The translations under genes were made by a program, and so were the position numbers. A DNA stretch of 64,000 nt from Corythucha ciliata (Eukaryota > Arthropoda > Insecta > Hemiptera > Tingidae), in assembly GCA_038030265.1 (NCBI GenBank), contig CM075941.1:53483952-53547951 (forward strand), written 5' to 3'. The notes below the pieces were generated by a model. The model saw nothing but the letters and a program-made list of their open reading frames with translations, ran no database searches and was not told the origin of the DNA. Numbering within the stretch: position 1 is the stretch's first letter; every line of letters starts with the position of its first letter. Shown here piece after piece: positions 1,176 through 62,450 of the stretch.

Positions 1176-1249
1176 AAAAAATGTTTAGTTTCTAAATGTT
1201 GCGTTTAGCTGTCGGGACCCCGAATCCCGCAGTCACAAAAATAAAGAAC

Positions 1250-6889: not shown

Positions 6890-7680
6890 TAGTGATGTTC
6901 CTCAATTTTAGCAGCGAATTGCCGCTTTTTCTGAATTGTAGTAGCGTTTCCAACCTGTGCATTACCTACCGAATTTTCTCAATTTAAGCTGAAAATTAGC
7001 CATTTTTTCCATTTTTAGCTGAGAATTGGCATTTTCCCCCAATTTTATCTGAAAATTAGCGTTTTTCTATTGTAGCTCCGCTAATTGGTGATTTTTTCAA
7101 TTTTAGCCGCGAATTAGTGATGTTCTTCATTTTCATCCGCGAATTAACGTTTTTCCTCAACTTTATATCCGCAAATTGTCCATTAGCGATTTTTCCCAAT
7201 TGCAGCTGTGAAACAGCGTTTTATGCTAATTTTGCGGCGATTTAACATCTTTTCCCTTTTTTATACGCGAATGGGCGATTTTTGGCAATCTCAGTTGTGA
7301 ATTTGCCATTTTCGTCCAATTTTAACGTGAAAGCATTTTTTTTTTTTCAATATTATGGCGTGTTTTCTCAATTTTAACCGCGGGGTTGGCCCAAAAACAA
7401 CTTTTTTTGTTTATTTCCACAATTTATTTGTAGAATGGCCTCCATGCTCCGCGAATCAGCGATTTTTTCTCAATTTTAGCCCGTAAGTTGCATCGCGATA
7501 CCACGAATCAGGCTTTTTCGCAGTTATAGCCACGAATATTAGCGATTTTTTTGCCGCGTCAGGAAGTTGCAAGTTGCCGATCAGCACTTTACTTGACTTG
7601 AGGATCTAGCGAAACTGGGGACACGGTGTATTTTCTCTTTTTAGCCGCGGATTTTTTCAATTTGAGCCTCCAGACTAGTG
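6890..7680. repeat. Degenerate short-unit array, type A
   Basis: Loose tandem repeats of roughly 30-38 bp. The unit is TTTTAGCCGCGAATTAGCG followed by a TTTTTCTCAA-like spacer, strongly diverged. The same type recurs, in both orientations, at 18065-18545, 23110-23720, 45585-46080, 46905-47000 and 52005-52360. It has no coding potential. Confidence 0.65.
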
Positions 7681-8229: not shown

Positions 8230-8570
8230 GCAATAGCTGAAAAATTGCACTATGTTGGAGCTAGGTTTCCGCGAAAAAGGAAGTTTCCTGGCTGAATATT
8301 CGCGAAATTGCAAGTTTTAGGTCTTCATTTCAGCGAAATTGAAAGTTTAGGGGTCTTTGTTTTTGGTTTTTTTAGTGCGCGCTGACCCTGGGCCCCGACT
8401 GCGTCCATCCATACCCTGACGATTAGCTGTAGAGCTAAATATGTTTGAGTTTGCAAGCTTGGGCCCTAATCTGAGTGAAACTACAAGTTTCCTGCGGCTG
8501 AATATCTGCCGCTAGAAATTGACAGTTTCTATAGTCTTCTGGTCATAATAGCGAAATTACAAGTTTTAAA
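8230..8570. repeat. Degenerate short-unit array, type C
   Basis: Repeats of the form ATTCGCGAAATTGCAAGTTT alternating with short spacers, in the opposite orientation to the block at 690-1175. Non-coding. Confidence 0.5.
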
Positions 8571-10747
8571 GCCTTTTGCCACTGCTGGCAGCTGCGGCTT
8601 TGCAGGGACATTTAGAACGGGTGGGCTCATTTTTTGGCCTACCAGGTGGTTTTTAGATGGTTTCACCATTTTTCGACCAAATATGTGGCCATCGGGCATC
8701 GTCAGAAGTGTTTTTTTCAGGGGAGGTATTAAGGGACTGGGCCAGGGAGTCGATAGAGGGCCGAGCCCTATAGAGACCAAAAGGCTTTTGCCACCGTCTT
8801 CGTATTTGGCAGACCATCCGAGCCAACAGATTCCGCCCCTGATGTTTCGGGATGGACTACTCGTGATGATACTGATGATGCCCGGGAAAAATTCTTCCCT
8901 TTACATTATGAATACACCCTTTAGGAGGCGTTAGCGTCGTCGAAGCGGTGTGTCGTTTTGTAACCGCTAAATGAGGTGAGGCAACTTGTTATACGGTAAT
9001 GTGATGCACGCACCAAGTCTTGACGAGAAGAGCGTACACCCCCCACCACATCATGAGCGTCTACAAACGTGTTCACTGTTGCCTGAATATCACGGTAATA
9101 AATAAACCAACTGTAGCAGTCGTCATTTTTATTCGAAGCGCGAAATCTTGAAAGTTCATCGCCCGTGGGTGTTCTGGGCATGTTCCGTAACTGTACATCA
9201 CGCTTATTTTGTGTGTTTTTATTACTTCCGTTCGTTACGTTTTATTTTTATATATTTTTCTAATGGGCCACGGTTGTGACAAATCATGTTTCTCTTCTCA
9301 TTAAGTTGGGCTATAGGAAGAAAATACGTCTTACGTGATTATTTTTGTCCTTCCTTTCGTTGAATTTTAAAAACGAGATTTTTAAGTATAAGTTGAAACA
9401 GGCGCACAATTCGATACGTGACATAACAATAGTCGTTACGATTGCCCCAAAAATTGAATTCACTCCTGCTTAAATGGTCCTCACACAGCCAGCCACACGG
9501 CATGCTTAAACGAAAATTAGTGTGCTGGGCGGCGTTGTTGACCCCAACGGAGAAAACGGGGTCATTCAACAATTGCATAACTTTTTTTTTTTATTCATGA
9601 GAACACTGTCACTCGTTTAACGAACCTAATCAAAGGCGTTGTTGTCGAATGCCAGGTCAACATTATAAGTTAGAACTGCGGAAATGCTTCGAATTAATTC
9701 AAAACGACCACGGTGGACGAGAGGAGTTGTTTACGGTACCGGAAGAAAAACGTTTTTTGACGAAATTTGACACGATCAGATTAAGATCTTGGACGTGTTT
9801 TAATTTCACGCAAAGTATAACTAACCCCCGTAACGGCTGCGCGCCGTTCATTTGAAACCCGTTAACCAATTCCTTTCGTCAAAGAAGTTATTCGCCAAAA
9901 ATCGTTCAGTTCTTTTACCCGAAACATCTCCCCCTCCTCCCCCCCCAATCAACCACGAAAATTCATGACCTCCATAGTTTTTCATAGATGATGTACTACT
10001 TCGCGCATCATTTGGCGACAAACATCGCACCTTACTGTAATCTTTATGTCTGTCGGTAGAATTCCAAAGACCGAGACAAACGCGTATACACTACTATGCG
10101 TGGAATATATGAAGGAGGAGGGGTGGACTCACTATAAAGGTTCATTGCCTCTATTTCTCGCCGAGTACTGCACACAATGGTAAAAAAAAAACGGGTCCTT
10201 CACATATACCAAAGCCAACATAGTCGCGAAACCTCATTCTTTCCAAACACCGTACGTACAGTGAGAAGGAGCGGTGCCGACTTGGGGGTACGCACATTGT
10301 GTGTAAAAATCTTCAAAAGACATAACGCGTCACGCATCATCGACCGTCTTTTTTCTTTTTAAAGAACTTGGGATTGTACTTTCCAATCACGAAGTTCTTG
10401 GAGAGAAAAAAAGATGAAACCAAGTCAAAACCCAAGTTCCTTCCCCCACCCCAACCTGTAAAAAGACACGGATAGTGAATATTCATCAAAAGCAATGAGG
10501 GAAGCACACAAGTTAACTCAAGCGTTTCACTTTTTTTTCGGGGTTTCTAGTTTGTTAGTCTGGCTTGAGTAGAACACGACACCTTCTTCTAGAAGTGGGA
10601 ATTGGGAAACGGTTTCATCCTCACTTCCTCATTCCCTCTCACTCACTTCTCATCAAAGTAGGCCACTAATCGAAGATAAGTCCCGTTTCTGCGGTTTTTT
10701 TTTCTTTCTCTTTCTCCTTCAGAAAAAAAAAGTGATCGGGTTGCGTA
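8571..10747. other. Unrecognised sequence
   Basis: No gene is supported. The least repeat-like open frame is at 9649-9855 (+), 68 codons. It starts with a normal ATG, has no homopolymer or array character and is moderately charged, but I do not recognise it and see no splice partners. It could be a chance frame or an isolated exon. Confidence 0.3.
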
Positions 10748-12009: not shown

Positions 12010-13366
12010 GGCGGCGATTTGCGTGTTACAGTACTCGTGTTTTATAGTGCCTTAGTTTGGGGCATGATTAGCCAGTCAAGCAATTTTACAGCGCGAAAGT
12101 AGTAAGTTTATCCAGTCCTCAGAGTGCGTTTAACAGTAACCAATGCTGTGACGGTTGTGGGGGGGGGGGAAGAAGGGGGAGGTTCGATCATCTGGTAAGG
12201 AGGGAGGGCATGGCCCATGTTCGGTGCGCAAAATGCCAGTGGCCACTTATATCGTTTTAAGGCGTGTAATAGCCATGTTTGGCAATTTTTAGAGAGTGAA
12301 GGCGATTGCCAGTACGAGTGTGCCATTTTTAGGGCGTGAGTACTGAACAGCCAGTTTGGCCATTTTTAGAGCTCAAACTATTAGTATGGCCATTTCTCAG
12401 TCTGTGTGTTTACAGGGCACAATTCATCAATTTTCGAACTTTAGGGTCCGAACGGTCACAGTTTGGCCGTTTTTAGACCGGGAATTGCCAGTTTGGCATT
12501 TTTAAGGGTGCAAAGAGCCAGTTTTGCCATTTATAGGTCGTAAATAGCACGTCAAACCAAGGCGAGAACAGTCAGTTCTGCCGTTTTTCGCGTTCGAATG
12601 ATCGATTTTGTCATTTCTGGAGGAGGGATCTAGACATTTCCAGGATGCAAATTGTGACTTAATCCATTTTTATGGCTCGGTCAGTTCGAACATTTTTAGA
12701 GCGAGAGCTATTTTAACGCATAAAATAATCAGTTTAGCTATTTTCATGGCGCGAATGGTCGTTTTTGCAATTCACAGGGCAAGAGTTCTTCTGTTCAGGC
12801 TTTTCCTGGGCGCGAATAGTCTGTTTAGCCGTTTTTTGGAGCAAATAGCCTGTCAAGCCAAGGCGCGAATCGTCAGTTTGGTCATTTTTGGGACGCATGG
12901 TCGATTTAGCCATCTTCATGGCGGGAATTATTATGATATTTCAGGAATTTCTTGGGCCGCACGAATCGTAGATTTAGCCATTTTTAGGGCGCGTGAAGCC
13001 ACTGCGTCTTCCATTTACATACAATTCTGCCCCAGAACAGTTTATTTCCATTCTTCGTCTCTGTATTAAAACATATGTTAATGGAGAAGATGGGTGGAAA
13101 TAAATTGTTTAGAACAGAATTTCGTGTGAATGGAAAAGGGCACCAGTTTGGCTATTTTGAGGGCTTGAACAGTCAGTTTAGCTATTTCCAAGATGCAAAT
13201 CGTCAGTTTTGTTTTTTTTGGGGCGCACTTTTGCAGCCTAGCCGTATGTGGGCATAGCTAATTTAGCTATTTTTAGGCAGCGAATGGCTGCTAAGAAATT
13301 TTTTGTAGAGTCGAAGAACACAATTTCTCAAGCCCCTCCCTTGAGGAAAACCTTAATCCGCGCCTG
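12010..13366. repeat. Type B array with a hAT-like right end
   Basis: Loose repeats of about 35 bp (GCGAATCGTCAGTTTGGCC-like plus ATTTTTAGGG) fill 12010-13300. The 153-codon open frame at 12608-13069 is an array shadow. The block closes with CCTTAATCCGCGCCTG at 13351-13366, whose reverse complement, CAGGCGCGGATTAAGG, is a typical hAT-like terminus. A left end with the matching 8-bp flank was not found, so the element is probably truncated. Confidence 0.55.
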
Positions 13367-13699
13367 CTCAGAGGTTATTTACCATTGATGCCATGGACTG
13401 TTACTTAGCAGGGCTAAATAGCGAACTTTTAGGGCCAAACAAATCGGTTTTTTTGTTGTGTCTTTTGTTTGTTTGTTTTTTGTTCTTTTACGTCTTTTAC
13501 AGATATTTATTTTACTTATACTTTTGTTTCGTTGTTTTTATCGTCGTTGTTATTATTATTATTTCTCAACTATGATGTGCGCTTTGCAATCTGTAATTAC
13601 CCACTCATTTGTGTAGGGCGAGCGAAATCAATTTTGCGGGTTTGGGCCATTCAAATGCCGCATTATTAGGATTATTGCCACAAATTTAGCCCCCTCTCC

Positions 13700-17993: not shown

Positions 17994-18545
17994 GGCGAGC
18001 CTCGGTACCCCGTTCGGATGGGGCCCCTGAATAGCTTATAGACGAAAAAATAGGGATTTTTAAGAAGATAAAATGAGAAGGCTAAAAACGCTGATTCGCG
18101 GCTGAAATTGAGAAAAATTGCTGAAATTTATGGCTGTTAATATTGAGAAAAGGCGATAATTCATAGCTGAAATTAGGACGACGCAAAATCACGAATTGTT
18201 AGGGCAAAATCGGGTCTGAAATCAGGAAAAAGCGCTAATTCACGCGGCTCAAACTGAGAAAAGCGCTAATTCAAGGATGAAAAAGAGAAAAACGCAAATT
18301 CGCGTCTTGAAAAAACAAGAAACACACACACAAACACATTCACAAATAAAATTGTGATAAAGTGCTACAATTTAGCAGCTTTAAAAATTCAGAAAAAGCG
18401 CAAATTCACAGTTGAAAGGGAGAAATGCCAACTCTTGGATTCTCGGGGCAACATTGGGACTGAAATTTAGAAAAAGCGCTAATTTACGGGTGAAATAGAT
18501 AAAAACGCGAATTCGCGTCTGAATGTTTGCGGCTTGTGACGCACT
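17994..18545. repeat. Possible hAT-like left end plus type A array
   Basis: CAGGGGCGAGCCTCGG at 17994 looks like a hAT-like terminus and is followed by a type A array in reverse orientation (TGAAATTGAGAAAAAGCGC-like units) over 18065-18545. The right end was not identified. Confidence 0.4.
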
Positions 18546-19512: not shown

Positions 19513-21329
19513 CAGGGGTGTAGCGTGGCATTTTGATTCCTGGAGCGGTGATCATGCTAGATGCCCCCCCCCCCTCACTATCAATTTTTTTTTTTCGTGG
19601 GCGGTGAAAATACGTAAACACAAAAATGTTTGGAATGAGTCAACGGGTTACAGAATTGCCAGGTTGGGCTATAAAACGAATGTTTCCGGATGCTACTTTG
19701 AGGTTAAAATCTAGGAAAAGCGCTATTTAAATCAACCAAAAACGCGAATATTGGGCTTCTCGACTCAATAAAAAATCATCCAGGGGTTAGGATATTGGAA
19801 AATTTCAGGGTTCTGGGGGAAACATCGCCCAAACGTCGCGGGCCAATCATCGTATTCGATTTAGCAGGGAAGGACCACGCCCTATTTTAACTGCGGAAAG
19901 GGTCTCAAAAGGTATGCGCTTATTCCTGTATCAGACCGTGGTGTCAGATTCATTGCGTGGGAATGTTTTTCTCGGCAAAAATCAGCAGTTTCAGAGTTCT
20001 TGTGGGCTAGATTTTCTGTAATTAAGCCAAATATGATGTACGATAAAAAAAGGGGGGGGGGATGTTGAGATGAGAAAACCAACTTTGCGGAAATGGCTGT
20101 TCAAGAAACCGATTCCGTGGGGTTCAATCGTTGAAAAAAACAATCCTGGGGGTTTGGCTCTGCAGAGAAAAAAAATCGTGGGCTTGGCTTACAAAAAAAA
20201 AAAAAAAACACAAACTTTGCGGGGTTCGGCTTTTCAAAAAACCACTTTCACTGGTTTAACTCTTGAAAATCCCATTTTAGAGGATTGGCTCTGAATAGAA
20301 CCAACTTCACAAGTTCAATAATCCAATCTCAAGGGCTTTAGACGTTCAAAAAATCCATCTTGAGCGTTTATATCTTCAAAGAACATGAATTCGCAGAACT
20401 TGGCATACTCAAAATACCAATTTCGCAGGTAATTTGACTGGATAAAAAACCATCTTACGGGTTAGTCTCTTCAAAGAATCAATTTACCTCGTTTAAGCCA
20501 CTGAAAAAACAATTTTACAGGGTTCAGTCGTTGGAAAAACTAATTTTGCTTGTTTGGCTCTAGCAAAGTTAATTTTGAGGGTTTGGGTAATCAAAAATCA
20601 ATTTTGTGGGGTTTCGACTTCAAGAAACCAATTTCAGGGATCAAATTAAGAAATAAAATTTGGCGGATTTGGCTCTTCAAAAAACTATTTTCACAGATTT
20701 GGCTCTTTCATAAAGTCAATATCGCGGATTTGGCTCTTTTAAAAAATCAATTTTACGGATTCTGCTCCCCTTTCACTTCCATGTTTTTTTCCTCTTTTCG
20801 TTAATCAAAATACCTCAATTCCGTGGGTTTGGCACCGTCAAATTCTTCCAGCTTACACTTGGTGTGTGTGTGGGGGGGGGGGGAGGGGGCGTGGGCGGAG
20901 CGTTTTTCCGTGGAAAGTGACCGGTTGTGGGATGCCATTCGCAGACCCTGGCACGCTCTGGATTCGACTGTTTCGTTTCACAACTCCCAAGAGAGTCATG
21001 ATGGCCCAGACTCAGTTTTTACGCCCCCTCCCACCAACTGACAGTCGTTACTGATATACTGGGCCATTTTGTGTGGTTTTGGTACTGGTGATCTCAGCCC
21101 GCGATTTCTTTCACGAGGAGCACCTGGCAACTATGGCCGGTTGAATGAAGAGATGTGGAGTGTTTTGTACCGGTGGTGCGCAAAGGGGCGCTATTATTTA
21201 TCCCGAATGTGCTGGGTTCTTTAACATTTATTCATGCTAAAAATTAATAAAAATCTCAGACTGATGCCCAATTTCAAGTGATGCCCGGGGCGGGCCGCCC
21301 CACCGTTCCCTCTATACGCTAAGCCACTG
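19513..21329. mobile_element. hAT-like array element with 8-bp flanks
   Basis: The left end is CAGGGGTGTAGCGT at 19513 and the right end is ACGCTAAGCCACTG at 21329; the ends are inverted imperfect copies. The flanks are CCCATAGT (19505-19512) and CCCACAGT (21330-21337), a 7/8 match, as expected for an aged hAT target duplication. No transposase is encoded. The body includes a type D array (20065-20830) of about 38-bp units combining a GGGTTTGGCTC-like word with CAAAAAACCAATTT-like sequence. The element ends about 400 bp before the DMAC2L-like start codon. Confidence 0.65.
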
Positions 21330-23109: not shown

Positions 23110-23720
23110 TCGTTTGTAGTTAGCGAGTTAGCGATTTTTCTCATTTTTTGCCGTAAATTAGCGCTTTTTGCTAATTGGCTGCAAAGTTGCCTCCGGAAGC
23201 CTCGGCTTGCCATTTTCCCAATTTTCTGTGAATTAGCTCATTTTCTCAATTTAACCCTCAATTAGCCATTTATCATGATTATAACCACACATTAGCCCTT
23301 TTCCTCATTTTAGCCGCTAAAATTATAGATTTTTATACATTTCAGCCACGAATTAGAGTTTTTCCCCAATTTTTGTCGCGAATTACGTAAAGCTTTTTCT
23401 GAATTTGGCAGTAGATTAGCGATTTTTTCACTTTCTGGCACAAAGCTACCTTTGGAAGCCGCGAATTTGACGTTTTGTCCATTCAAATCGCGGCAAAAAT
23501 TGAGAAAAATAGCTAATTCGCTAATGAAAATGACAAAAAACGTTACTTAGCGGCTAAACTTGGAACAATCCTATTTCGCGGATTTCATTGAAAAGACTAG
23601 ATAATTAATTCGCTACTAAAATTGTAAAAATCCGATAATCTGCTGATAAAGTCTAGAAAAAGCGCAGGTAAGTGCGGGGCAAAAATAGCTCGTACATTGC
23701 TAATTTGCGGCCAATATTGA
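23110..23720. repeat. Degenerate short-unit array, type A
   Basis: The CCGCGAATTAGCG / TTTTTCTCAATTTT pattern runs forward up to about 23480 and then continues as its reverse complement (GAGAAAAATAGCTAATTCGC-like). The array therefore changes orientation in its middle, giving a large imperfect inverted structure. Confidence 0.6.
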
Positions 23721-23744
23721 GAAATTGAGAAATTGCTTCCCGCC

Positions 23745-30000: not shown

Positions 30001-33000
30001 TGGGGTGCCCAAGAGAGGCGAGAGTGTACTGTGAGTCCCAGGAACTTGACAGTGTCAGCAGACGTCTAGTTGGACCTTTGCTGTGGTCGAGACTTTGGCT
30101 GTGGTTGGACTTTCGCTGTGGTTGGATCTTTCCTGTGGTTGGATCCTTGCTGTGGATAGACCTTTGCTGAGGCTGGACCTTTGCTGTGGTTGGACCTTTG
30201 CTGTGGTTGAGACCTTTGCTGCGGTTGGACCTTTGCAAATGTCTAACCACTGCAGAGCTCTCAACCACAGCAAAGGTCCAACCTATGCAAACCACAGTAT
30301 TAGTGAAGTGGTTTGGTTGTCACTTCTGAATAAGGCGCTTGAGACAAAAAGTATTTTATTTTTTGACAGAACCCAAAAACTCAAAAGTAGAAATTCTAAA
30401 ATCGGAACGGTACTAAATTCATATGTTCCTTATAAAACAATGTGGTCGAAAATTTTCACCACATCACCCCCTTGGAGGAGGAGAGCGTAGCTCGCCCAGA
30501 TCGAAGCGAACCTTCTTGTTTATGGCTGAAGTTGTCGGGTGGGTGAGGGTGGTAGAGTCTACGTCTTCGTGAAGAAAATACGCCGGTTTGACACGGTCGA
30601 TTGAGACTGTTACGTGTTTATCAGAACTGGTCTTGATCGTGATGGTCTTGTAGACTTTGCCGCGTTTAACGACGGGATAGGGTCCTGAGTACCGATTTTG
30701 GAAGGGATGACGAGTGCTGTCATCACGTAACATGACGTGTGTACAAGAGTCGAGATTTTTTGAAGACGAAACTACCAGGTGTCGAATGTCGAGAAGTCGG
30801 TATTGGTCGGATCTGACTGATGATTTTAGCGAGGTGTTCGATTAACTCAGGAGTAGAATTTGTTTCGGGTTGAGGTGACAAGAATTCTCCTAGAAGTCGA
30901 AGACTTTCTCCAAAAACGAGGGTTGCCGAGGTGGTTTGAAGATCTTCCTTGAAGGCGGATCGTATTCCAAGGAGAACGAGGGGAAGTTTTTCGGTCCAAT
31001 TTCTGTCAGCGTGGCAAGTGATGGCGGTTTTTAGCTGACGGTGCAAGCGTTCGACCAAGCCGTTGGATGCCGGGTGGCAGTGGCGTGCCCAGGAATTTTT
31101 CTTGGGGGGGGGGGTTTCAAATTACATAAAGGGCACGGTCCTTTATAGTCAACTCTGCGCCAATAGTCAATTCATCTTTTAAGGGCGCGAATAGCCAGTT
31201 TGGCAATTTTTTCGGTGCAGCATGGCACAAATCGTCATTTAAGCCATCTATACAAGGCGCGAATGATCGGTTCCGGTATTTCTAAGGCACGAATTGTCCG
31301 CAGTTTCACCGTTTTCAAGCCGCGGAAGATCAGTTTTTTTTGCTGGTGCCGATAGCCACTTTGAAGACGCGCAGTAGCCTCTGTAGGGCGCAAAAGATCT
31401 GATTAGCTAATCTTTGGACCGTGAATTTCTGGTACGAGTATGCCATTTTTAAGACTTAAATAGTCAGTTTTGCTATTTTTAGGGAACGAATCGTCAGTTT
31501 AGACATTTTCAGGGCATGAGGTTCAGTTTGGCCATTTTTTATGCTGGATAATGGTCGATTTTGCATTTTCAGGACATGAATCATCCGTTTCGGACCTTTC
31601 AAAGCACGAATCTCGCGGGCCGCTATATGTAGAGTTGGTATTACTAATTTTAGGACGTGAATAGCCAGTTTGGCCATTTTTACGGCGCAAAATGTCAGAA
31701 TGGTCATTTCTAAGGCATGAAGAGTCAGTGCGATATTTTAAGTGCTCGAATCATCAGTTTTACTAGTCGAAATGGTCAGTTTTGCTGTTTTTAGAGCGAG
31801 AAATTTCTATTTTTCAAAGCGCTAATGGTCAGTTTGGCCAATTTAAGGACAGGAATCGTCTGGGTTTAGGCATTTTCAAGGCGCGAATCGTCAGTTAAGC
31901 TATTTTTAGGGCGCATAGAGTCAGTTTTGCCGATTTCATGGCTTGCATAGTCAGTTTGGCCAATTTTAGGGCGTGTAGTCTTGAAGCATGATATTTATAT
32001 AGGGCGTCAAACCAAGGCGATAATGGTCAGTTAGGGCATTTTTGGCGTGCGACTGGTTGATTTTGCCATTTTCAGGGCGCGAATCGTCAGTTATACTTTG
32101 CCCAAACATAACAGCATATAGGCGGGTTCAATTAGTCACTTCTAGCCAATTACGCACGAATCGTTATTTTGACCATTCTTGGCGCGCTAATGGTCTATTT
32201 TGCAGCTTTCAGGACAGGAATATAATCTGTTAAGGCATTTCCAGGCCGCCTAGAGTCATATTGACCATTTTAGAGCGAGAATCGCCAATTTGGCTATTTT
32301 TGGGGCGTGTGAAGTCATTTTGGCGGTTTTATAGAGTGGTAAATGCCAATTTTTAGGGCGCAAATATACATTTTAAATGCAAGAATCGTCAGTTTTGTCA
32401 TTTGCAGGCGCGATTATAGTCAGTTTAGCAGTTGTTAGGTAGTGAATTACTGCCCTGTCAAGCCATTTTTAGTCAGTCTAGCGAAGCACACAATCTCCTA
32501 AGCCCAAGCCCCTCGCTTGAGCAAATCCTAGATCCGTATCTGAGTACGAGTATGCCATTTTTAGGGAGTGAATAGCCAGTTTTATTTTTTTTATTATTAT
32601 TTTTTTTTTTAGGGCACGAATGTTAAATTTAGACATTGTGAAGGCTCAGTTTGGCTATTTTTGACGCGGGAATTGTCGTTTTTGCCATTCTCAGGTCAGG
32701 AATAATCTGTTTAGGCCTTTTTAAGGCGCGAATCGTCAGTTTATTGTTAAACTGACTCTATGTGCCCTTGTCTGGGGCACATGGAATGGTGTTGCCGATT
32801 TTGTGGCTTCATTGCCCAGTCTGGCCATTTTTAGGGCGCGTAGAGTCAGTTTGGCCATTTATATAGGGCGTGAATAGTACGTCAAGTCAAGGCGCGAAAA
32901 CCGTCAGTTTGGCCAATTTTGGCGCGCGGGTGGTTGTTTAGCCATTTTTAGAGCAGGAATCATCTGTTCAGGCATTATCAGTGCACAAATTGCCAGTTGA

Positions 33001-36000
33001 TCCAGTTTTATGACTCTTAAAAAAAGTCAGCTTGGACAATTTTAGAGCGGGAATCACCAGCTTGGATATTTTTAGCGCACTTATGTATAATCAGTTTAGC
33101 TTTTTTCAAGGCGGAATCAGTTTTAGCTATTTTCAGGGCACGTGAAGTCAGTTTGGCTATTTTTATGGCTCAAATACTTAGATTTGCCATTTTGGGGCGC
33201 GAGTATAGTCAGTCTAGGATTCTGTATGGTGGGAATAGCTAATTTAGCTAATTTTAGGCAGCAAATGGCTGCCAAGTCATCTTTAGTAGAATTTCTCAAG
33301 CCCCTCTCTCTTGAACAAATCCTGAATCCACGCCAAGACAGTGGAATAAATACCATATTATGCCGTGGATAGTTACTTAGGGTACTAAATTGCTAAAAAA
33401 AGAACTTTTAGGGTCATACAAATCACGTTTTTGTTGTTTCTTTTGTTTGTTTGTTTTTTTACTTTTTTACTTATTCATTTCATTTTATTTATTTATTTTG
33501 TATTTCTATTTCTTTTTTATTTCTATTTATTTTGGTGGGCTGAAGTACTCTGGGGGGGGGGGTTCTGACCCCCAAAACCCCCCCCCATGGGCACGCCACT
33601 GCCGGGTGGTAAGTCGTTGTGTGACACACATCGATTCCGAAACGTTTCGAAAGTGTGCAGAAAACTGAAAACATGAACTGCATACCGCGATCAGTAGTGA
33701 TCTTTTCTGGAACGCCGTAACGAGAAATCCACGTGGATAGAAAAGCGAGAGCAACGGTGTTAGCTGTGATGTCAGGAAGAGGAGTTACTTCTGGCCATCG
33801 AGTGACACGATCGATGCAGGTGAGACAGTACCTGAAACCATTCGAAAGTGGAAGTGGGCCGATCAAATCGATGTGGACGTGAGAGAAACGATATGTAGGA
33901 GTGTCGAAATGTCCTAGCGGTGAGTGGACGTGTCGCGAAACTTTGGACCGTTGACAAGCAAGACAAGCACGTGTCAATGCGGGAATATCCTTCTTCATTG
34001 ACGGCCAAACGAATCTTTCGGTGATCAGTCTTGTAGTCGCACGAGCACCGGGGTGGCTGGGTGTGTACTGAGGAAAACTGAGCGTCGTAAAGGATGAGGA
34101 ATAAAAGGGCGAGGACGACCTGTTGAGGTGTCACAAATTATCTCAATTCGCGTGCCAGGAACGATGAGTTTTTCGAGAGTAAGAGAAGACGTTTTTGATT
34201 CCCAAGACTGAAGCTCGGGGTCTAATTGTTGCGATTGAGACAACGATTCGAAATCGAGAGCCGTTGAAACAGATTGTACTCGAGATAGGGCGTCCGCGAC
34301 GACGTTGTCAGATCCTCCTACGTGTTGGATGTCGGTTGTGAACTGTGAAATGTATGTGAGCTGATACGTTGGACAGGGGGCAATTTGTCATGTTTTTGTG
34401 TGAAGATATGTGTGAGGGGTTTGTGGTCAGTGTAAGTTGTAAATACTTGGCCTTCCAGAAAATGCCGAAAATGATGAATTGCTTCATAAATCGCTAGAAG
34501 TTCTCTGTAGTAGACGGGCCACGCAGCTTGACGAGCAGAGATCTTTTTTTGAGAAAAAAGCGAGTGGTTGCCAAGCGTCATTGGTCTTCTGCTGGATGAC
34601 AGCTCCGATGGCGTGATTAGAAACGTCTGTGAATAACGCCACTTCTGCTCCGGTTACAGGGAATGTGAGGGAAACTGCCGAAGAGAATTTATTTTTGCAG
34701 TCGTTGAAAGCTTGTTCAAGGCGCGAAAACCGTCAGTTTGGCCAATTTTGGCGCGCGGGTGGTTGTTTAGCCATTTTTAGAGCAGGAATCATCTGTTCAG
34801 GCATTATCAGTGCACAAATTGCCAGTTGATCCAGTTTTATGACTCTTAAAAAAAGTCAGCTTGGACAATTTTAGAGCGGGAATCACCAGCTTGGATATTT
34901 TTAGCGCACTTATGTATAATCAGTTTAGCTTTTTTCAAGGCGGAATCAGTTTTAGCTATTTTCAGGGCACGTGAAGTCAGTTTGGCTATTTTTATGGCTC
35001 AAATACTTAGTTTTGCCATTTTGGGGCGCGAGTATAGTCAGTCTAGGATTCTGTATGGTGGGAATAGCTAATTTAGCTAATTTTAGGCAGCAAATGGCTG
35101 CCAAGTCATCTTTAGTAGAATTTCTCAAGCCCCTCTCTCTTGAACAAATCCTGAATCCACGCCAAGACAGTGGAATAAATACCATATTATGCCGTGGATA
35201 GTTACTTAGGGTACTAAATTGCTAAAAAAAGAACTTTTAGGGTCATACAAATCACGTTTTTGTTGTTTCTTTTGTTTGTTTGTTTTTTTACTTTTTTACT
35301 TATTCATTTCATTTTATTTATTTATTTTGTATTTCTATTTCTTTTTATTTCTATTTATTTTGGTGGGCTGAAGTACTCTGGGGGGGGGGGTTCTGACCCC
35401 CAAACCCCCCCCCCCATGGGCACGCCACTGCCGGGTGGTAAGTCGTTGTGTGACACACATCGATTCCGAAACGTTTCGAAAGTGTACAGAAAACTGAAAA
35501 CATGAACTGCATACCGCGATCAGTAGTGATCTTTTCTGGAACGCCGTAACGAGAAATCCACGTGGATAGAAAAGCGAGAGCAACGGTGTTAGCTGTGATG
35601 TCAGGAAGAGGAGTTACTTCTGGCCATCGAGTGACACGATCGATGCAGGTGAGACAGTACCTGAAACCATTCGAAAGTGGAAGTGGGCCGATCAAATCGA
35701 TGTGGACGTGAGAGAAACGAGATGTAGGAGTGTCGAAATGTCTTAGCGGTGAGTGGACGTGTCGCGAAACTTTGGACCGTTGACAAGCAAGACAAGCACG
35801 TGTCAATGCGGGAATATCCTTCTTCATTGACGGCCAAACGAATCTTTCGGTGATCAGTCTTGTAGTCGCACGAGCACCGGGGTGGCTGAGGTTGTGTAAC
35901 TTGAGAAAAACTGTGCGTCGTAAAGGATGAGGAATAAAAGGGCGAGGACGCGACCTGTTGAGGTGCCACAAATTATCTCAATTCGCGTGCCAGGAACGAT

Positions 36001-39000
36001 GAGTTTTTCGAGAGTAAGAGAAGACGTTTTTGATTCCCAAGACTGAAGCTCGGGGTCTAATTGTTGCGATTGAGACAACGATTCGAAATCGAGAGCCGTT
36101 GAAACAGATTGTACTCGAGATAGGGCGTCCGCGACGACGTTGTCAGATCCTCCTACGTGTTGGATGTCGGTTGTGAACTGTGAAATGTATGTGAGCTGAT
36201 TACGTTGGACAGGGGGCAATTTGTCATGTTTTTGTGTGAAGATATGTGTGAGGGGTTTGTGGTCAGTGTAAGTTGTAAATACTTGGCCTTCCAGAAAATG
36301 CCGAAAATGATGAATTGCTTCATAAATCGCTAGAAGTTCTCTGTAGTAGACGGGCCACGCAGCTTGACGAGCAGAGATCTTTTTTTGAGAAAAAAGCGAG
36401 TGGTTGCCAAGCGTCATTGGTCTTCTGCTGGATGACAGCTCCGATGGCGTGATTAGAAACGTCTGTGAATAACGCCACTTCTGCTCCGGTTACAGGGAAT
36501 GTGAGGGAAACTGCCGAAGAGAATTTATTTTTGCAGTCGTTGAAAGCTTGTTCGAGAGTCGGAGTCCAAGTGATAGGGGTCGAGCCTTTGACGTCGGGGC
36601 CAAGAAGGGCGTGAAGAGGAGCTTGAACTTCTGCTGCCATGGGGATATGTCGTCTGTAAAAATTCAACATGCCGAGAAAACGACGGAGACCTTTTGCATC
36701 AGATGGTTGAGGATAGAATTGAATGGCGGCGACACGATCAGGCGGTGGGGCTATACCTTCGGCGGAAACACGATGCCCGAGAAAAATTACTTCGCTCGCA
36801 GCAAAAACGCTTTTCGAAGTGTTAATGACGACGCCGTAGTGCGACAGGCGTTTGAAAAGAGTTTCGAGATGAGCGATGTGTTCTGCTCTTGATTTGGAAA
36901 ATATGAGGATGTCGTCGATGTAGACATAACAGAAATCTAGGCCTCGAGTTACTTCATCCATGAAGCGCTGGAAAGTTTGAGCGGCGTTGCGAAGACCGAA
37001 GCACATAAATGGAAACTCGAACAAACCGAAAGGAGTTGAGATTGCTGTCTTACAAATGTCCGACTCGTTGACAGGAATTTGTTGATAGGCTTTAACCAAA
37101 TCAACTAGAGAGAAAATAGTAGAACCACTGATTGAATGAGCGAAATCATGTATGTGTCGAACGGGATAACTGTCAGGAATGGTACGTGCGTTTAGAGCGC
37201 GATAGTCGCCACAAGGGCGCCAGCCGGTGCCAGTTTTCTTTGGCACGATGTGAAGAGGGGATGCCCAAGGACTATCCGAAGGACGTGCGGTGCCTTCTTG
37301 AAGCATTGCTTCGAACTCTTTCTGTGCGATTTTTAAACGATCACCAGATAGACGACGTGGGCGAAAAGAAATTGGAGGGCCGGGAGCGGTATGTATGTAG
37401 TGTTTGGTCGAGTGTTTTATATCCCGAGGTACTACAGATGGACGAGTAATTTCTGGAAATCGTGAAAGTAACTCAGCGAACGGATGAGAATCGTCGATTG
37501 TTTTGATGTTGGGGTACGTCTGACTTATTTTTGAACAGGCGACGGAAAGTCCAGTTGTCCCATCGAGAAGACGGTGAGATCGGCAATCTGGCAACAGATG
37601 GAAATGGCCAAAAAAATCAAGAGTTAGCGTGACTGAGCCGTATGTGCTGATGTTCGACGTATTCGCGGCGTAAAGATCGAACGAGGTTTTAGGACGACGG
37701 TTTGAAAGAAAACGTGCCGGGAAACAACAAACGTCAGAACCGGTGTCGAGAAGAAACTGTTTTGCGGAATTACGGTCGGTAATGATAAGGCGGTACTTTC
37801 CGATTTTGCAGTCAGCTGCCGCCGTTACTGGCTGCTGGTGGCGTTTTTTGAATGAAACGAACAGGGCGGTCTGCATTTTGATGCTCGTTCATTGAACTTG
37901 GCGTGGTACCAACAGAATGTCGATTGTAAAGCTGCCGATGGACTGCGAGAACGGGTTGAATGACTTTGACGAGAACGGGAGCGAGAGTGTCGAGGGTTGT
38001 TGGAAATTCGGAGTGTGAGGTCTGCGAGCTGTTGATGAATCTTGGTGAGTTCACGACTGATATCTTGTCCTGGGGGAGATACAGCGTTGACGACGGGGAA
38101 AGAGGGATGAGAAGAAGCTATGGCAGGTTGAATTTCCATTATTTTGTCCGCTATTGCGGAGAGACGGTCGAGCGGCGAGTCAGACTGTGTTTGGAGAATG
38201 GCTTGGACAGGGGGCGGGAGACGTTGGATCCACAAAGATCTTAACAGATTTTCATGCACCGGGGTCGGTCCAGCCAGAGATCGTAAGTGTCGGAGGAATT
38301 GCGATGGTTTCCAGTCACCTAATTCCTCTTGGGAGAGTAGCTGTCGAACACGTTGAGACTCGGAAACAGAAAGGCGTTCGATGAGAGCGTTTTTGAGAGT
38401 TGTATAGGGGTTCTGCGCAGGAGGTGTTGCTACTAGGTCTTCGATTTCGCTGATATATCGTTCGTCGAGTTGAGAGATTAAATGCGAATACTTCGTTGTC
38501 TCTTGAGTGATGCCGGCGAGAGCGAATTGGGCATCTACTTGAGAAAACCACAATGTCGGTTTATTTCTCCAGAACGGAGGAAGTTTCGGAGTGACGCGGC
38601 TGACGAAGGCGGGGTTTGCGTTTTGAGGAGCGGCTTGATTATCGTGGCCGACCGGTGGAGCGGCGGGAGGCGTCAACTCTTGAATTTGTTGGCGTAATTG
38701 AGCGAGTTGCTCAACCAATTCTTCGATGTTGGCCATGTCACGTCGAGCGTCGGGGTCGGATGTCGAATTTTCTTGTTAATGAACGTCGCGGGTCACCAAT
38801 TTGAAGTGGTTTGGTTGTCACTTCTGAATAAGGCGCTTGAGACAAAAAGTATTTTATTTTTTGACAGAACCAAAAAACTCAAAAGTAGAAATTCTAAAAT
38901 CGGAACGGTACTAAATTCATATGTTCCTTATAAAACAATGTGGTCGAAAATTTTCACCACATTAGCTTCAAGCACAAAGAAGAACCAACCACTGCAAAGC

Positions 39001-45584: not shown

Positions 45585-46080
45585 TTTATTTTGGCCGCAA
45601 ATTAGCGTTTTTCTCATTTTAGCCGCTATTTATGGATTTTCTACGTTTCATCAACGAATTAAAGTTCCCCGTTCACCACGAATTAATTAACGCTTTTTCT
45701 GAAATTTAGCCGCGGATTAGCGATTTGTTTCACTTTCTGGCACGAAGTTACCTTCAAAAGCCGCGAATTGACGATTTCTCCATTTAAACCGCGATTTAGT
45801 GTTTTCCTTACTTTAGCGCTTCTTATCAATTTTATGAATGAATTAGCAATTTTTCTCCATTTTAGCCGCGAATGAACGATTTTTTGTCATTTTAGCGATT
45901 TGTCACCATTTTAGCTGTGAATTAGCGTGTTTCGTAATTTTCAACGCGAGTTACTGTTTTTTACACTCTATCCGCGATTTTAGTGTTTTTTCTCAATTTT
46001 AGCCGTGAAGTAACGTTTTACGTCGCGAATTAGCTGTGTAGATTTATTAATTTTTTCCGTGATTTAGCACTTACTCTCAC
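45585..46080. repeat. Degenerate short-unit array, type A
   Basis: CCGCGAATTAGCG / TTTTTCTCATTTTAG units of about 30-38 bp, directly abutting the foldback at 45205-45580. The copy-2 foldback also abuts a type A array (52005-52360), so the foldback may have inserted into this array type twice. Confidence 0.6.
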
Positions 46081-46224
46081 TTCATTAGAAACATCCTATA
46101 CAGGTGCCAGACACGATGATGATGATGGGATTTTTCATACGATGGGCTTCCGGACTACAAAGTATTTTTCGGAAGAATCCTATTACTATTCGGATATTTG
46201 GTAGGTTCCAGTTAGTCTGGATAA

Positions 46225-51840: not shown

Positions 51841-52360
51841 AGATATCTCTCAACAGAAATAGGTTGGTTAGTGGAGGACCACTGACGTATTTTAACTCCC
51901 ACCGATATCGTTCGGCCGATCACGGTTGATCTATCGTCGTTTCTCGCCCACTAACGAGCAGAATGAGCAGATCTTTCCGTCCGATCTCTCAGACACACAA
52001 AATCTGCCGCAGATTGAGAAAAAGTGCTAATTCAGGGCACAAATTGAAAAAAATAGCTAATTTACGGGTAAAATTGAGACAACTCCTACAATTCGTGGCT
52101 AAAATTGGGATAAAAGTCAAGAGTAAGCCGTAAATTGAGGTAAACGTCAAGAGAGTAGAACGCTACAAATCATATCTAAAATTAAGAAAAATCGCTAATC
52201 AGCGGGTAAAGTTTAAAAAAGCGCTAATTCGACGAAAATTGTAGAAGAAAAAATCAATAATACACGGCTAAAATTGATAAAACACCAATTCGCTGCTCTT
52301 GAAGGTAACTTTGTAGCCAAAGTTGAGGAAAAGTGCTAATACACGGCACAAATTGAAAAA
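51841..52360. repeat. CAGAT-rich remnant and type A array
   Basis: 51841-52004 continues the CAGATCTn-type inverted words found left of Gypsy 2. From 52005 the sequence is a type A array in reverse orientation (AAATTGAGAAAAAGTGCTAA units). Confidence 0.5.
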
Positions 52361-56169: not shown

Positions 56170-56929
56170 GAGGTGTGACGTGACAGCTTTTGTCGGTCAC
56201 AGCGACAACTAGCTCCGGTGACTGTGCAGTCACTGTGACAAAAACCAGTGATTTTGTCACTTAAGTGACTACTGAGGGCCTGTTCTATAACTTTTTAATG
56301 TCCCTATCATTGTTTAGTCAGGTTATGGTCCGGTTATGGTCAGGTTTATCAACGAAATTGTCTAGCTCACGTGTTTTTGCATCGGTTACAAAAAAAAAAA
56401 ATAATTCTTTTTCTAACTTTATCCGTGGAAAACTCCTATGAACGGCGAACCCACAGCCTCAAATGCAAACATGAAGGTGAGTCATGGATCAAAAACTGCA
56501 ATGCACGAATTTTACTAGGAACATAGGCATAGCCAGATGGGGGGCAGGGCTAGGCAGCTGCCCTACCCTAGACTCAAAAATGCAGATTCAGTGGGGCAGT
56601 TGCCCACCCCTAGATGCATTCTGAAAGTACAAATCTTTCAGGATAATCACATTTTGTTTCGCCGGCGCTCACTAAAAAAATTACTTCACGGATTTCACTA
56701 ATAAAAAAAAATAAATTTCAACGGGTTTTGTCGCTCACAAAACGGATATCGCAAGGGTGACATAGTTCAAAGACCAAATACGCCGTTTTTGCGTCCTAGA
56801 ATACCATTTTCGCAGACAGACGCGGATTCAGTATTTGCTCATGAGAGGTGCTAGAGAAATGGCGTGGTTCACTCTATTACAACTGGTTTGACAGCCTTTT
56901 CACTGCCTAAAAATAGTAAAAACTAGTAA

Positions 56930-58520
56930 TTTGCACTATTAAAACGGCTAAAGTAACTAAACTAACGCCCAAAAATATAAAACTGTCGATTCGCGTTTTG
57001 AAAATTGCTAAAACTGGACTTCACGCGCCCTAAAAATTGGTGGCGACTGGTGAACTTCTGAAAATGCCTAAAAAGATCATGATTACCCCCCGAAAGTAGC
57101 TAAATCGACCATTCGTGCGCTAAAATTGATCAGACTGGCCACTCTTGAGCCATATAGGACCATAATGCGCGCTCTTGGCTTGACGGACTAATCAAGCTCT
57201 GAAATCGGCCAAAATGACTTCACGTGCTCTGGAAATGCCTAAAATGATGATTCCTTCCCCGAAAATGGCAAAATCGACAATTTGCGCACCAGGAATGGTC
57301 AAACGTCATGGCCTTGGCTTGATGGACTAGGTATTTGAGCCCTGAAAATGGCAAAACTGACGATTCGTGTCTTTAAAATGGCTAAAATTACTACATATAT
57401 TTGAACCCTAGAAATTGCCGAATTTACTTTACTAGCTCTAGAAATGGATTACCTGACGAATCGAGCTCTAAAAATGTCTGAACAAGTGAATCCTGCCCTG
57501 AAAATGGCCAAATAGACCATTCGGAGTGCCGAAAATGGCCAACCTGGCTGTTCTCTCCTTGACTTGGGACGTACTATTCGCTCCTATAACTGGAAAGACT
57601 GACTTTATGCGCCCTAAAAATGGCAATGGCTATTTAAGCCTTGAAATCGTCAAAATTGACTCTTGGTGCTCTGAAAAGCTGTGCCCGACAAAGTAAAATG
57701 TCAATTTTGAAGTAAAATATTCAGTTTTGAGGTAAAGTGATATTTTTTGGGTGGAACCGCAAGTTTCAGGGTAAAATCGTCAGTTTAGGAACGTTTTTGG
57801 GATGAAATCGTAATTTTTGGGGGTAAAATGACCAGTTTTGTATTAACGTCGTCAGTTATGAGGCAACACGTCAGCTGTGGCGTGAAATCGTCTGCATTAG
57901 TATAAAATCGTCACATTTGCGATGAATTTTTTTTTTTTTTTTTTTTGTGAAATCACCCGTTTTCTAGGCAGAATGGCCTAAAATCACCCGTTTTGAGGGG
58001 TAAACTTAAGTTAAAGTGTGACATTGTCAGTTTTGGAGTAAATTATCTAATTTTGAGGGGAAATTGTCGTTTCGGGTGTAAAATATTCATTTTTGAAATG
58101 GAACAGTAAAGTTTAGTTTTAGGTTAGACTCGCCAGTTTTGTGGTAGCATCTTAATTTGGAGGGGGGGGGAGGCACGTCAGCTTTGGCCAGGAATTGTAC
58201 GTTTTTTGTTTTTTTGAACTAAAATCGCCAATTGAAGGATAAAATCGGCAGTTTTCAGTACTGAGTGGTCTGTTAATTGTAATTAAGTTCATTCGTTTTT
58301 GATCCGTTTCGGGTTAAACCCATCATTTTTAGGCGGAACTCCACCAGTTTTGGGGGTAAAGACTTGGATTTTAAAAGTTGTGCTGTGAAATTTTTAGTTT
58401 AGGCGTAAACACTTCGTCTTTGGCGTAGAAACGTCAGTTTTGAAGTAAAATATTCAGTTATACTAGAGTGAAATATTCAGTTTTTTTGTTAAAAAACGTC
58501 AGTTTTGAGTTATAACCCGT
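56930..58520. repeat. Type B (reverse) and type E arrays
   Basis: 56930-57680 reads AAAATGGCTAAACTGACGAT / TCGCGCCCTG, the reverse complement of type B. From 57680 the unit changes to TTTTGAGGTAAAATCGTCAG, type E, about 25-35 bp, with strong divergence. A T run lies at 57927-57946. Confidence 0.6.
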
Positions 58521-58552
58521 TATTGTTTGGTTAAAAAATGTTGAATTTTTAC

Positions 58553-58842
58553 TTAATAAATTAATTAAACTGATGTTATCCGGCTGACGATGGAAGGGCA
58601 TAGCCCAACACAATTCGAGTTTCGAGAAAAAACGGCTCCCCGGCGGGATTTGAACCCGCAACCTCTGGATTACCAGTCCAGCACGCTGCCAATTGCGCCA
58701 CGGAGACGCCTTTGGGAGTCGTACTCCAAGGGATAAGCTATGCCGAACCCCACCCAGGTCCATTGTTTCTTGAAACTCGAATTGTGTTGGGCTATGCCCT
58801 TATATCGTCGTCCGGATAACATCAGTTTAATTAATTTATTAA
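58553..58842. mobile_element. Foldback element carrying a tRNA-like gene
   Basis: Inverted arms of about 72 bp (58553-58626, 58771-58842) share TTAATTAAACTGATGTTATC and GGGCATAGCCCAACACAATT / GAATTGTGTTGGGCTATGCC. The loop of about 145 bp contains the tRNA-like gene at 58635-58707 and 60 bp of other sequence. No coding frame is needed to explain it. Confidence 0.75.
58635..58707 (-). tRNA. tRNA-like gene, predicted anticodon GGT (Thr)
   Basis: A 73-nt cloverleaf on the minus strand. D-stem GCGC/GCGT, anticodon stem CTGGA/TCCAG with loop CTGGTAA (anticodon GGT), a five-base variable loop, and T-stem GCGGG/CCCGC with loop TTCAAAT. The A-box TGGCGCAATTGG and B-box GGTTCAAATCC are both perfect, and a T6 run follows two bases after the gene, as a Pol III terminator would. 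The acceptor stem pairs in six of seven positions; the first pair is G-G. Eukaryotes normally read Thr codons with AGT, CGT or TGT anticodons, so GGT is unusual; a mutated or pseudo-tRNA is possible. No intron. Confidence 0.7.
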
Positions 58843-59636
58843 TTAAAATACCGGCGACAGAAATATTCATTATATCCATCTTGAATTTTTACGTCTCTCA
58901 GACAAGACGTTGATGAAAAGTCGGTCACCCTGTATATTTGAATGCCAAGTATCGATTTCCGGGGAAATCGAATTGTCTGTTAATAGAAAAAGTCTGAATA
59001 GAATTGTCAGTTTTTGGATAGAAAATCAGGAATAGAAGGCTAAAACAGATAATTTCCGAACGAAGATGTTAGTTTTTGATGGATTACGACCCTTTTTTGT
59101 GAAAACTCAGTTTCCGGGGAAGAATTTGACGATTCATTGCGCTACCAGTTCTTTTGTTGGGGTCTCTAGTTTCCATAACGTCCGACATATTCTGCCCACC
59201 CCATGATCAAGGGCTGGCTTCGCCCCTGCCTAGGAATGTGTTTTTCAATAAAGTAAAATTATGCAAGATTACTGTAGCACAGGTCTTGAAAAACGAAGTG
59301 AATAAAAATATATTAACACTAAAGGTTCAATACTAACGATAAGTCCAAGAAAAAAAGTCAACAGACTTGGGGAGAATGCTACTGAGTTCATTGGGCAATA
59401 GAGGAACTGGTAAAGTGTTACGTGGTAACCTACGAGGGTGGCTAGGCGACGGCTCCAATTTTAATTCAAGAGACTCTAGCGCAGTGAAGCGATAGAAGTG
59501 ACGAATGAAGAGGCGATTATAAGTGAAAAGGAATGTCACCGTTAGAGGGTCGGAACGGTGATTTCAATGTGGTCGTCACCGGAGCCAATAGTGACGGAGT
59601 CCCGATGGTGTGAGCGGTGTTGTGGAGTTACGAATT

Positions 59637-62169: not shown

Positions 62170-62450
62170 GAAATCTAAAATAGCCAGATTAGTGATAAAA
62201 TAAGCCGTTTTAAGCATAAATCACAATATGAGTACTTGCTAGAATCGCCATTTTTGTGCTAAAACCACAACTTTGTGCTAATATCACCATTTTTGGGCTA
62301 AAATTCGCCAGTTTCGATGTAACATTTTTAGTAGGATGGTTTTGAGGTAAAACCACTTAATTTATTTTTATGGTGAAATCGCCAGTTTGTAGTGAAAACA
62401 TCTATTTTCTGGTACTTAGCAGTTTTAGGGTTAAAACTTAATTATGGTTT
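62170..62450. repeat. Degenerate short-unit array, type E
   Basis: Units like TTTTGTGCTAAAATCACCA and TTTTGAGGTAAAACCACT of about 28 bp. Non-coding. Confidence 0.5.

What the first reader, a model, noticed from the sequence alone, without database searches (positions are those of the whole stretch)
31078..33601. hAT-like elements whose bodies are degenerate 30-40 bp arrays: a window-wide theme
Seen: this element has perfect 14-bp inverted ends and a perfect 8-bp target duplication, and it landed inside an RT-element integrase, so it truly moved. Its body is an array of about 35-bp units, not a deleted transposase. Two more delimited elements (19513-21329, 56522-59228) share the design with other unit types, and similar arrays lie at 690-2150, 6890-7680, 8230-8570, 12010-13366, 13700-15080, 18065-18545, 23110-23720, 45585-46080, 52005-52360 and 62170-62450. 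Known: non-autonomous hAT elements can carry minisatellites. Inference: one hAT machinery spreads many array types, in which the array may be binding-site bait, a stem-forming body or a recombination product.
Basis: partly seen in the sequence, partly recalled or inferred. Interest (0 to 1): 0.8.

Follow-up and report, generated by a model that had tools for sequence, protein, structure and literature searches.

The report
Jumping genes carrying frozen repeat arrays
In this animal genome a recently active jumping gene carries, in place of a gene, an old, decayed array of about 30-base repeats, and arrays of this kind, built on steps of two or three turns of the DNA helix, fill roughly a tenth of the DNA sampled.

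Summary
E1 (31078-33601) is confirmed: 14-bp inverted ends, 8-bp target duplication, inside a young Gypsy element. It belongs to a young non-autonomous hAT family: of 20 end-pair loci fetched, 10 are 2.5-kb copies at least 98.97% identical, 9 with their own perfect duplication. Its body, a degenerate 30-bp array, is copied unchanged: 11 copies show no unit gained or lost, though units are only 58% alike. So it is old cargo, not an active minisatellite or stem. E2 has hAT-like ends with a 7/8 duplication. E3 is an ancient hAT insertion inside a larger repeat. The window's arrays form five unit types; with two from elsewhere, all seven consensus units contain CARTTT. In 200 kb sampled elsewhere, 244 of 278 array windows have periods of 19-21 or 28-32 bp (about 10% of the sequence), with A/T-G/C alternation near 10.25 bp. 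Recognisable hAT-end sequences lie beside an array at 5 of 6 loci, but most arrays show no ends. The helical spacing and shared core look new; function is unproven, no selection was seen, and one stricter null is only borderline.

The parts
31078..33601 (+). E1: non-autonomous hAT element (young family), body a type A array
   Evidence: perfect 14-bp TIR and 8-bp TSD; 10 of 20 fetched loci are copies at least 98.97% identical
31070..31077 (.). left target duplication CCGGGTGG
33602..33609 (.). right target duplication CCGGGTGG
31130..33330 (+). type A array, 30-bp units, 76 units recognised
33290..33340 (-). internal module resembling a hAT end (GCGTGGATTCAGGATTTGTTCAAG...)
   Evidence: other copies at 32539-, 13363-, 56820+ and 35162-
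32887..34720 (+). first copy of a 1.83-kb tandem duplication covering part of E1 and of the integrase; second copy 34716-36556
30304..38962 (-). Gypsy element that E1 entered; LTRs of about 160 bp with 1 mismatch in 161
19513..21329 (+). E2: hAT-like ends, TSD 7/8, type D array (19700-20850)
56522..59228 (+). E3: old hAT-like insertion (TSD 7/8) inside a larger repeat; type A array (minus, 56850-57690) and type E array (20 bp, 57690-58560)
12010..13540 (+). old relative of E1: type A array, internal end-like module and tail; unit order colinear with E1
690..2160 (+). contiguous arrays of types C (690-1260), D (1260-1620) and A (1620-2160)
6890..7680 (+). type B array
8230..8600 (-). type C array
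18065..18545 (-). type B array (weak by autocorrelation)
23110..23735 (.). type B array, plus strand to about 23485, then minus
45585..46085 (+). type B array beside a foldback element
52005..52360 (-). type B array beside the same foldback element
62170..62905 (.). type E array (62170-62450, plus strand) with an E3-like end, reversed, at 62905

Best explanation
E1 is a non-autonomous hAT transposon. A hAT transposase made elsewhere in the genome cuts and pastes it by its 14-bp ends (inferred). Its body is not a gene remnant but an old array of about 76 degenerate 30-bp units that is copied unchanged at each jump (shown for 11 copies). The array belongs to a superfamily of degenerate arrays, of at least seven unit types, spread over the genome (shown in the sample). 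The type consensus units share a CARTTT core and repeat every two or three helical turns, with A/T-rich and G/C-rich stretches alternating about every 10.25 bp (shown statistically, with one stricter null only borderline). Most likely the array formed by tandem amplification of a core-bearing unit, decayed, and was then passed between hAT families as a block by nesting and capture (inferred from shared colinear blocks and internal end-like modules). In today's young family it behaves as neutral cargo. Why the units keep whole helical turns is not explained; packaging or binding on one face of the helix at the time of amplification is the likeliest cause (inference).
For: TIR and TSD. 387+405 ends against 13+7 reversed. 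17 of 20 fetched end pairs with perfect TSDs, all 17 different; 10 copies of 2514-2526 bp at 98.97-99.33% to E1. Search with the right tail: 695 candidates, 40 scored, all 98-100%, two of them the window's own. 11 copies: 61 substitutions (0.22% per base), 55 variable sites of which 3 shared, largest array indel 6 bp. Units 73% to consensus, 58% to each other, adjacent pairs no closer than all pairs. Unit order colinear with E1 at 12010-13366 and in E3, above all 60 permutations each. Internal end-like modules. CARTTT in 7 of 7 type consensus units, at most 5 of 7 in 300 null draws. Periods: 244 of 278 overlapping windows, or 30 of 36 merged segments, at 19-21 or 28-32 bp. W/S spectrum peaks at 10-10.25 bp while R/Y and K/M peak at the unit length. 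hAT ends beside arrays at 5 of 6 loci. hAT dimerisation domains are abundant: 150 matches among 150 scored of 655 candidates.
Against: No autonomous element with E1's ends was found: none of 11 hAT-domain places on contig 1 below 49.8 Mb lies within 10 kb of an exact E1 end in the partial list. Most arrays have no recognisable ends, and none of the five end-beside-array loci gave a complete end pair. The best core match is CARTTT in 24 of 32 single arrays, not all. The array at 1620-2160 is not colinear with E1 beyond chance (0.48; permutations up to 0.70). The helical W/S signal is weaker against a null that keeps run lengths (P 0.08-0.26 per type; types A-D combined 0.055); irregular spacings show no helical step; 3 of 15 window arrays lack a W/S signal at P 0.025. 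The E1 superblock duplication is not beyond chance (0.91; largest of 100 permutations 0.93).
Confidence: 0.8

Rival explanations
1. Binding-site bait: the CARTTT core, repeated on one face of the helix, is bound by a hAT transposase (BED finger) or host factor and gathers it to the element.
For: Core in 7 of 7 type consensus units, spaced at whole helical turns; core more conserved than the rest of the unit in 25 of 32 arrays (whose choice of window favours this). Hermes transposase BED domains bind several subterminal repeats (PMC10368747, passages).
Against: No depletion of new mutations in the core of the young copies: 8 in 430 bp against 37 in 1714 bp (low power). In E1 the array fills the whole body in one orientation. 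The Hermes paper calls a role for binding further inside the ends unlikely (passage). The same type occurs with different ends.
Confidence: 0.13
2. Coincidence: the arrays are an independent, genome-wide satellite-like component into which, or around which, hAT elements happened to insert; E1 merely captured one.
For: Arrays cover about 10% of the sample, far more than the E1 family could supply (at most about 0.2% of the genome by its end count, own arithmetic). In the window 4 of 15 array tracts lie between hAT-like end pairs; in the sample one of six strict end pairs holds arrays. hAT-like end motifs near array blocks: 7 in the right orientation, 4 in the wrong one, 21 elsewhere, no clear excess.
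Against: Known hAT end sequences found in the sample lie beside an array in the right orientation at 5 of 6 loci (one, L031, is a copy of the E3 repeat; one, L040, is 1.5 kb off). All five window types occur inside some hAT-end pair (E1, E2, E3, L047; type C in L047 by eye). Blocks are at most about 3 kb, not satellite blocks.
Confidence: 0.15
3. Active minisatellite: units expand and contract inside each copy by recombination or slippage.
For: Tandem structure; possible larger block repeat inside E1.
Against: 11 copies at 11 places keep the same units; largest array indel 6 bp. No neighbour similarity.
Confidence: 0.03
4. Stem-forming (foldback) body.
For: The array at 23110-23735 and the two arrays of E3 change orientation.
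Against: In E1 the inverted pairs all use one reversed 20-nt stretch at 32749-32768; E2 has one weak A-rich pair.
Confidence: 0.02

Closest known systems
Non-autonomous hAT elements / hAT MITEs (for example Mar in Drosophila, PMC3517528, seen in listing and abstract start only)
   Same: hAT-type ends, no coding capacity, many copies (8-bp duplication recalled)
   Different: E1 is 2.5 kb and its body is a degenerate 30-bp array
Helitron-type elements with central tandem repeats (DINE; CgHINE of oyster; PMC9659126, passages and section 2.1)
   Same: a transposon disperses tandem arrays as its body
   Different: Helitrons make no target duplication; here hAT ends, 20/30-bp units, no unit-number variation in the young family
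MITE carrying a satellite motif (miDNA4 of Xenopus tropicalis, PMC9659126 section 2.1)
   Same: tandem repeat born in or carried by a MITE
   Different: there amplification and homogenisation are proposed; here the array is frozen and decayed
Tnat1/Tnat2 of Arabidopsis (central tandem repeats of 60 or 240 bp; PMC10794571, passage)
   Same: central tandem repeats in a transposon
   Different: unit length; no shared core across types in that passage
Periodic An/Tn clusters (PATCs) of C. elegans (PMC7725773, passages)
   Same: periodic A/T runs (about 10-bp period recalled); 6-10% of the genome
   Different: not described in the passages seen as 20/30-bp unit arrays or as transposon bodies; anti-silencing untested here

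Membership tests
hAT superfamily (E1) | 8-bp target site duplication | tested here: met
   E1 perfect; 17 of 20 fetched end pairs perfect
hAT superfamily (E1) | short inverted ends of the CAGNGGCGT type (motif recalled) | tested here: met
   CAGTGGCGTGCCCA at both ends
hAT superfamily (E1) | moved by a hAT transposase | not testable with these tools
   hAT domains abundant but none tied to E1's ends
autonomous hAT element | encodes a transposase | tested here: not met
   no frame of 200 aa or more lies within E1 (one integrase frame overlaps its right end); 6 of the 8 long window frames scanned, no hAT domain
MITE | short (under about 600 bp, recalled), no coding capacity, high copy number | tested here: not met
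   2.5 kb; copies in the hundreds by end count
variable minisatellite (VNTR) | unit number varies between copies | tested here: not met
   11 copies, largest array indel 6 bp
satellite DNA | long homogenised blocks | tested here: not met
   units 58% alike in E1; largest block in the 200-kb sample about 3 kb
PATC | A/T runs periodic near 10 bp | tested here: inconclusive
   W/S power peaks at 10-10.25 bp; the published PATC score was not computed
PATC | protects from germline silencing | not testable with these tools
   needs an experiment
hAT superfamily (E3 as a mobile unit today) | independent insertions with own duplications | tested here: not met
   3 of 3 copies examined (window, L050, L051) share the left flank, 2 of 3 the right; the ends fit one old hAT insertion

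The most novel reading that the evidence does not exclude
The arrays are one superfamily of helically phased DNA, making up about a tenth of the genome. A shared CARTTT core every two or three helical turns and A/T-G/C alternation near 10.25 bp make the hAT body a chromatin-shaping cargo (bent or strongly nucleosome-wrapping, PATC-like). It was selected because it helped elements pair their ends or escape germline silencing, and was kept through changes of unit sequence and of transposon family.
Probability: 0.22. Interest if true: 0.85.

Novelty: new variant of a known kind. Interest (0 to 1): 0.62.

Why it matters
Tandem arrays inside transposons are known, and in the review passages seen here they serve as seeds of new satellites. 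Here a young, fixed-length hAT family spreads an array that was already decayed, so old repeat DNA is being renewed by transposition without homogenising. If the period rule (two or three helical turns, shared core) holds genome-wide, it ties the origin of a large share of repeat DNA to the geometry of the double helix and makes a chromatin role for transposon bodies directly testable.

Tried and rejected
Rejected: stem body for E1; expansion in place; decamer sub-repeats as the source of the 10-bp signal (lag-10 identity given W/S match 0.472; K/M and R/Y spectra peak at the unit length).

Inconclusive or against: excess of W/S-preserving changes (28.5% of 2258 against 22.4% of 255 in other repeats; saturation confounds). 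Run-length null, types A-D combined P 0.055, and no helical step in irregular spacings (these spacings were copied by hand). The contrast with 16-18-bp arrays is partly trivial, since such arrays have no harmonic near 10 bp. G/C runs are not enriched beside arrays: 7 in 25.8 kb of flank against 55 in 153 kb elsewhere. Search for inverted ends with any 2-12-bp duplication around 29 arrays gave only weak pairs, longest duplication 4 bp. Four weaker end hits in the sample (E 2e-4 to 0.025; L033, L034 and two in L040) are not beside an array and are not in the 5 of 6. Column conservation correlates among type A arrays, but they share ancestry, so this shows no selection. In one search some cross-type profile pairs also scored high (for example 8230 with E3a, z 5.6), so the split into types is not perfectly clean; sample arrays were assigned to types by eye. 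The end-like module's consensus was made from its own copies, so its low mismatch counts are partly by construction. Viral-contig scans gave one hit, not examined, and none.

Faults of my own: the blast part returned nothing, probably a bad gap setting; searches replaced it. The heading says 60 permutations; 25 were run. My note says 12 young copies; the right number is 10.

Literature: ten searches. Nothing in the titles, abstract starts and passages seen describes hAT elements with such arrays or this period rule; the library holds open-licence papers only. PMC2871265 and PMC7599744 were looked at in passages and gave nothing relevant.
Full report
What is there. The Gypsy LTRs differ at 1 of 161 aligned bases, so its insertion is recent and E1's jump is later still. 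The unit is 30 bp, not 35.

E1 is a young family. The exact 12-bp end occurs 387 times forward and 405 times reverse, against 13 and 7 for the pattern read backwards. I fetched 20 loci with facing ends, all on contig 1 and among the first 100 places listed. Ten are 2514-2526 bp and 98.97-99.33% identical to E1 over the full length; 9 of these 10 have a perfect duplication (L014 does not). Six are older relatives (two best matching pieces 72-94%), all with perfect duplications. Of the other four, L026 (4.3 kb) and L027 (5.0 kb, an E1 copy interrupted by a 2.5-kb insertion) have perfect duplications, L028 has 7/8 and L029 fails. In all, 17 of 20 are perfect and the 17 differ from one another. 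A search with E1's right tail gave 695 candidates; the 40 scored are 98-100% identical, two of them the window's own.

The array is frozen. E1 and the ten young copies, aligned, show 61 substitutions (0.22% per base per copy), at 55 sites of which 3 are shared. The largest array indel is 6 bp, so no unit was gained or lost. Yet the 76 units of E1 are only 73% like their consensus and 58% like each other, and neighbours are no more alike than any two (0.581 against 0.582). The decay is thus far older than the jump. Unit order at 12010-13366 and in E3's left half is colinear with E1, above all 60 permutations each; at 1620-2160 it is not (0.48; permutations up to 0.70). So an array of this make-up existed before these elements parted. 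A larger internal duplication in E1 is suggested but not beyond chance. New mutations are not depleted in the core, 8 in 430 bp against 37 in 1714 bp: no sign of present selection, at low power.

Nesting. A module resembling a hAT end (CAG, then RCGCGGATTCAGGATTTGTTCAAG) lies inside E1 at the array's end, once more within E1, at 13363 and at 56820, with 5-8 mismatches of 37 where the next best place in the window has 15 (the motif was drawn from these copies). It recurs beside arrays in L031 and L039. This suggests that arrays have been inside other hAT-like elements before the present ones. The name hAT end for this module rests on resemblance, not on a duplication.

E2 and E3. Both have hAT-like ends with 7/8 duplications; among 245 candidate pairs in the window only E1 (twice), E2, E3 and one unconvincing pair have a duplication with at most one mismatch. 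By simple arithmetic about 0.1 such pairs are expected (25/65536 times 245). A relaxed generic scan alone would not single out E2 and E3: 11 hits against 0-11 in 10 simulations. E3 needs a correction: two other copies, L050 and L051, share its outer left flank, and L050 also the right, with homology in L050 running on to 59595. The hAT insertion is therefore old, and in the copies seen a larger repeat is what multiplied. E3's left and right ends have 1151 and 1487 first-look candidates; the 40 scored for each are 96-100% identical.

One superfamily of arrays. Profile fits reduce the window's arrays to types A, B, C, D (28-31 bp) and E (20 bp), though a few cross-type comparisons also score high. 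A and E share AATCGTCAGTTT. Two more types, F (20 bp) and G (21 bp), came from the sample. All seven consensus units contain CARTTT on one strand; in 300 draws of seven native stretches of the same lengths the best shared motif of that form reached at most 5. Without E it is 6 of 6 against at most 4. Array by array, the best core match is CARTTT in 24 of 32; the core is better conserved than the rest in 25 of 32, though the choice of window favours that.

Helical steps. Twenty 10-kb stretches chosen by round coordinates, 14 on contig 1 and 6 on contig 5, were scanned with purine/pyrimidine and keto/amino signals only, blind to A/T content. Of 3867 overlapping windows 278 pass (3 of 3900 in simulated DNA): 122 at 19-21 bp, 122 at 28-32 bp, 34 elsewhere, none at 22-25 or 35-40. 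Merged at a slightly higher cut there are 36 segments: 5 at 20-21, 25 at 28-31, 6 elsewhere (17, 27, 42, 51, 61, 62). About 19.75 kb of 200 kb is covered. The mean A/T-against-G/C spectrum of arrays peaks at 10-10.25 bp, in the window (12 of 15 arrays at P 0.025 or less) and independently in the sample, while the other two codings peak at the unit length. Against native stretches the helical fraction gives P 0.003-0.09 for six types and 0.34 for G, combined 3.9e-5. Against a null that keeps run lengths types A-D give only 0.055 combined. Exceptions exist: 16-18-bp arrays at 24301-24781 and 28921-30481 and one in L046.

Link to hAT. In the window 4 of 15 array tracts lie between hAT-like end pairs. 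In the sample six strict end pairs were found and one holds arrays: L047:7456-9887, duplication TGCTCTGG, with types C (by eye) and B. The known end sequences, compared with the sample, hit six loci at E below 1e-5 outside their own; five have an array on the correct side: L031, L036, L039, L040 at 1.5 kb, L045; L030 has none. None of the five could be completed to a pair with a duplication. L031 is a copy of the E3 repeat (90.8% over 1420 bp). E3-like ends face types A, D and E in different copies. A plain motif count near arrays shows no clear excess (7 right way, 4 wrong way, 21 elsewhere). The link is therefore supported, but that hAT elements spread all these arrays is not shown.

Partner. 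hAT dimerisation domains are common: 150 matches from 150 scored of 655 candidates, many in long open frames. None of the 11 on contig 1 below 49.8 Mb lies within 10 kb of an exact E1 end in the list. E1's transposase stays unidentified.

Compared with what is known. Transposons with tandem bodies are established: DINE, CgHINE and miDNA4 (PMC9659126, passages and one section), Tnat1/2 (PMC10794571, passage), tandem repeats within Galileo's ends (PMC4168063, passages). Multiple finger-binding sites in hAT ends are known for Hermes (PMC10368747, passages). Curved A/T-tract satellites are reviewed in PMC8122249 (passages). PATCs are 6-10% of C. elegans and protect transgenes from silencing (PMC7725773, passages). 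New here, as far as the searches show, are the frozen decayed body in a young hAT burst and, if it survives a full survey, the rule of two or three helical turns with a shared core.

Noticed in passing
32887-34720 and 34716-36556: 1.83-kb tandem duplication, 98.9% identical, joining part of E1 to part of the Gypsy integrase, so a second E1 right end with the same duplication lies at 35430; true duplication or false assembly join.
   Followed up: partly
58547-58848: A tRNA-Thr gene (anticodon GGT, Rfam 60.6 bits) sits in a hairpin with 89-nt arms 91% complementary; a tRNA-like motif is also present in L050 and L051, so it belongs to the larger repeat.
   Followed up: partly
45190-45590 and 52356-52756: Two copies of a roughly 400-bp foldback element each abut a type B array on the same side.
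   Followed up: no
44273-44983, 56040-56163, 59791-59906: A 175-bp tandem repeat (4 copies) with single pieces on both sides of the E3 repeat.
   Followed up: no
24301-24781 and 28921-30481: Arrays with 16-18-bp units that do not follow the 20/30-bp rule; a 17-bp one lies in L046 at 2701-3360.
   Followed up: partly
40869-41885 and 41880-42901: 1.0-kb tandem duplication, 98.3% identical.
   Followed up: no
L032:1741-4740: 3-kb array of 20-bp units (AAAATTGACAATTTCCTCAT) with type B-like units on both sides in opposite orientation (flanks read by eye).
   Followed up: partly
L027:2826-4703: An E1 copy carries a 2.5-kb insertion with an open frame of 626 codons, reminiscent of piggyBac transposases (recalled, not tested).
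   Followed up: no
1240-1290: The switch from type C to type D units falls in a unit that starts as C and ends as D, near the shared core (read by eye).
   Followed up: no
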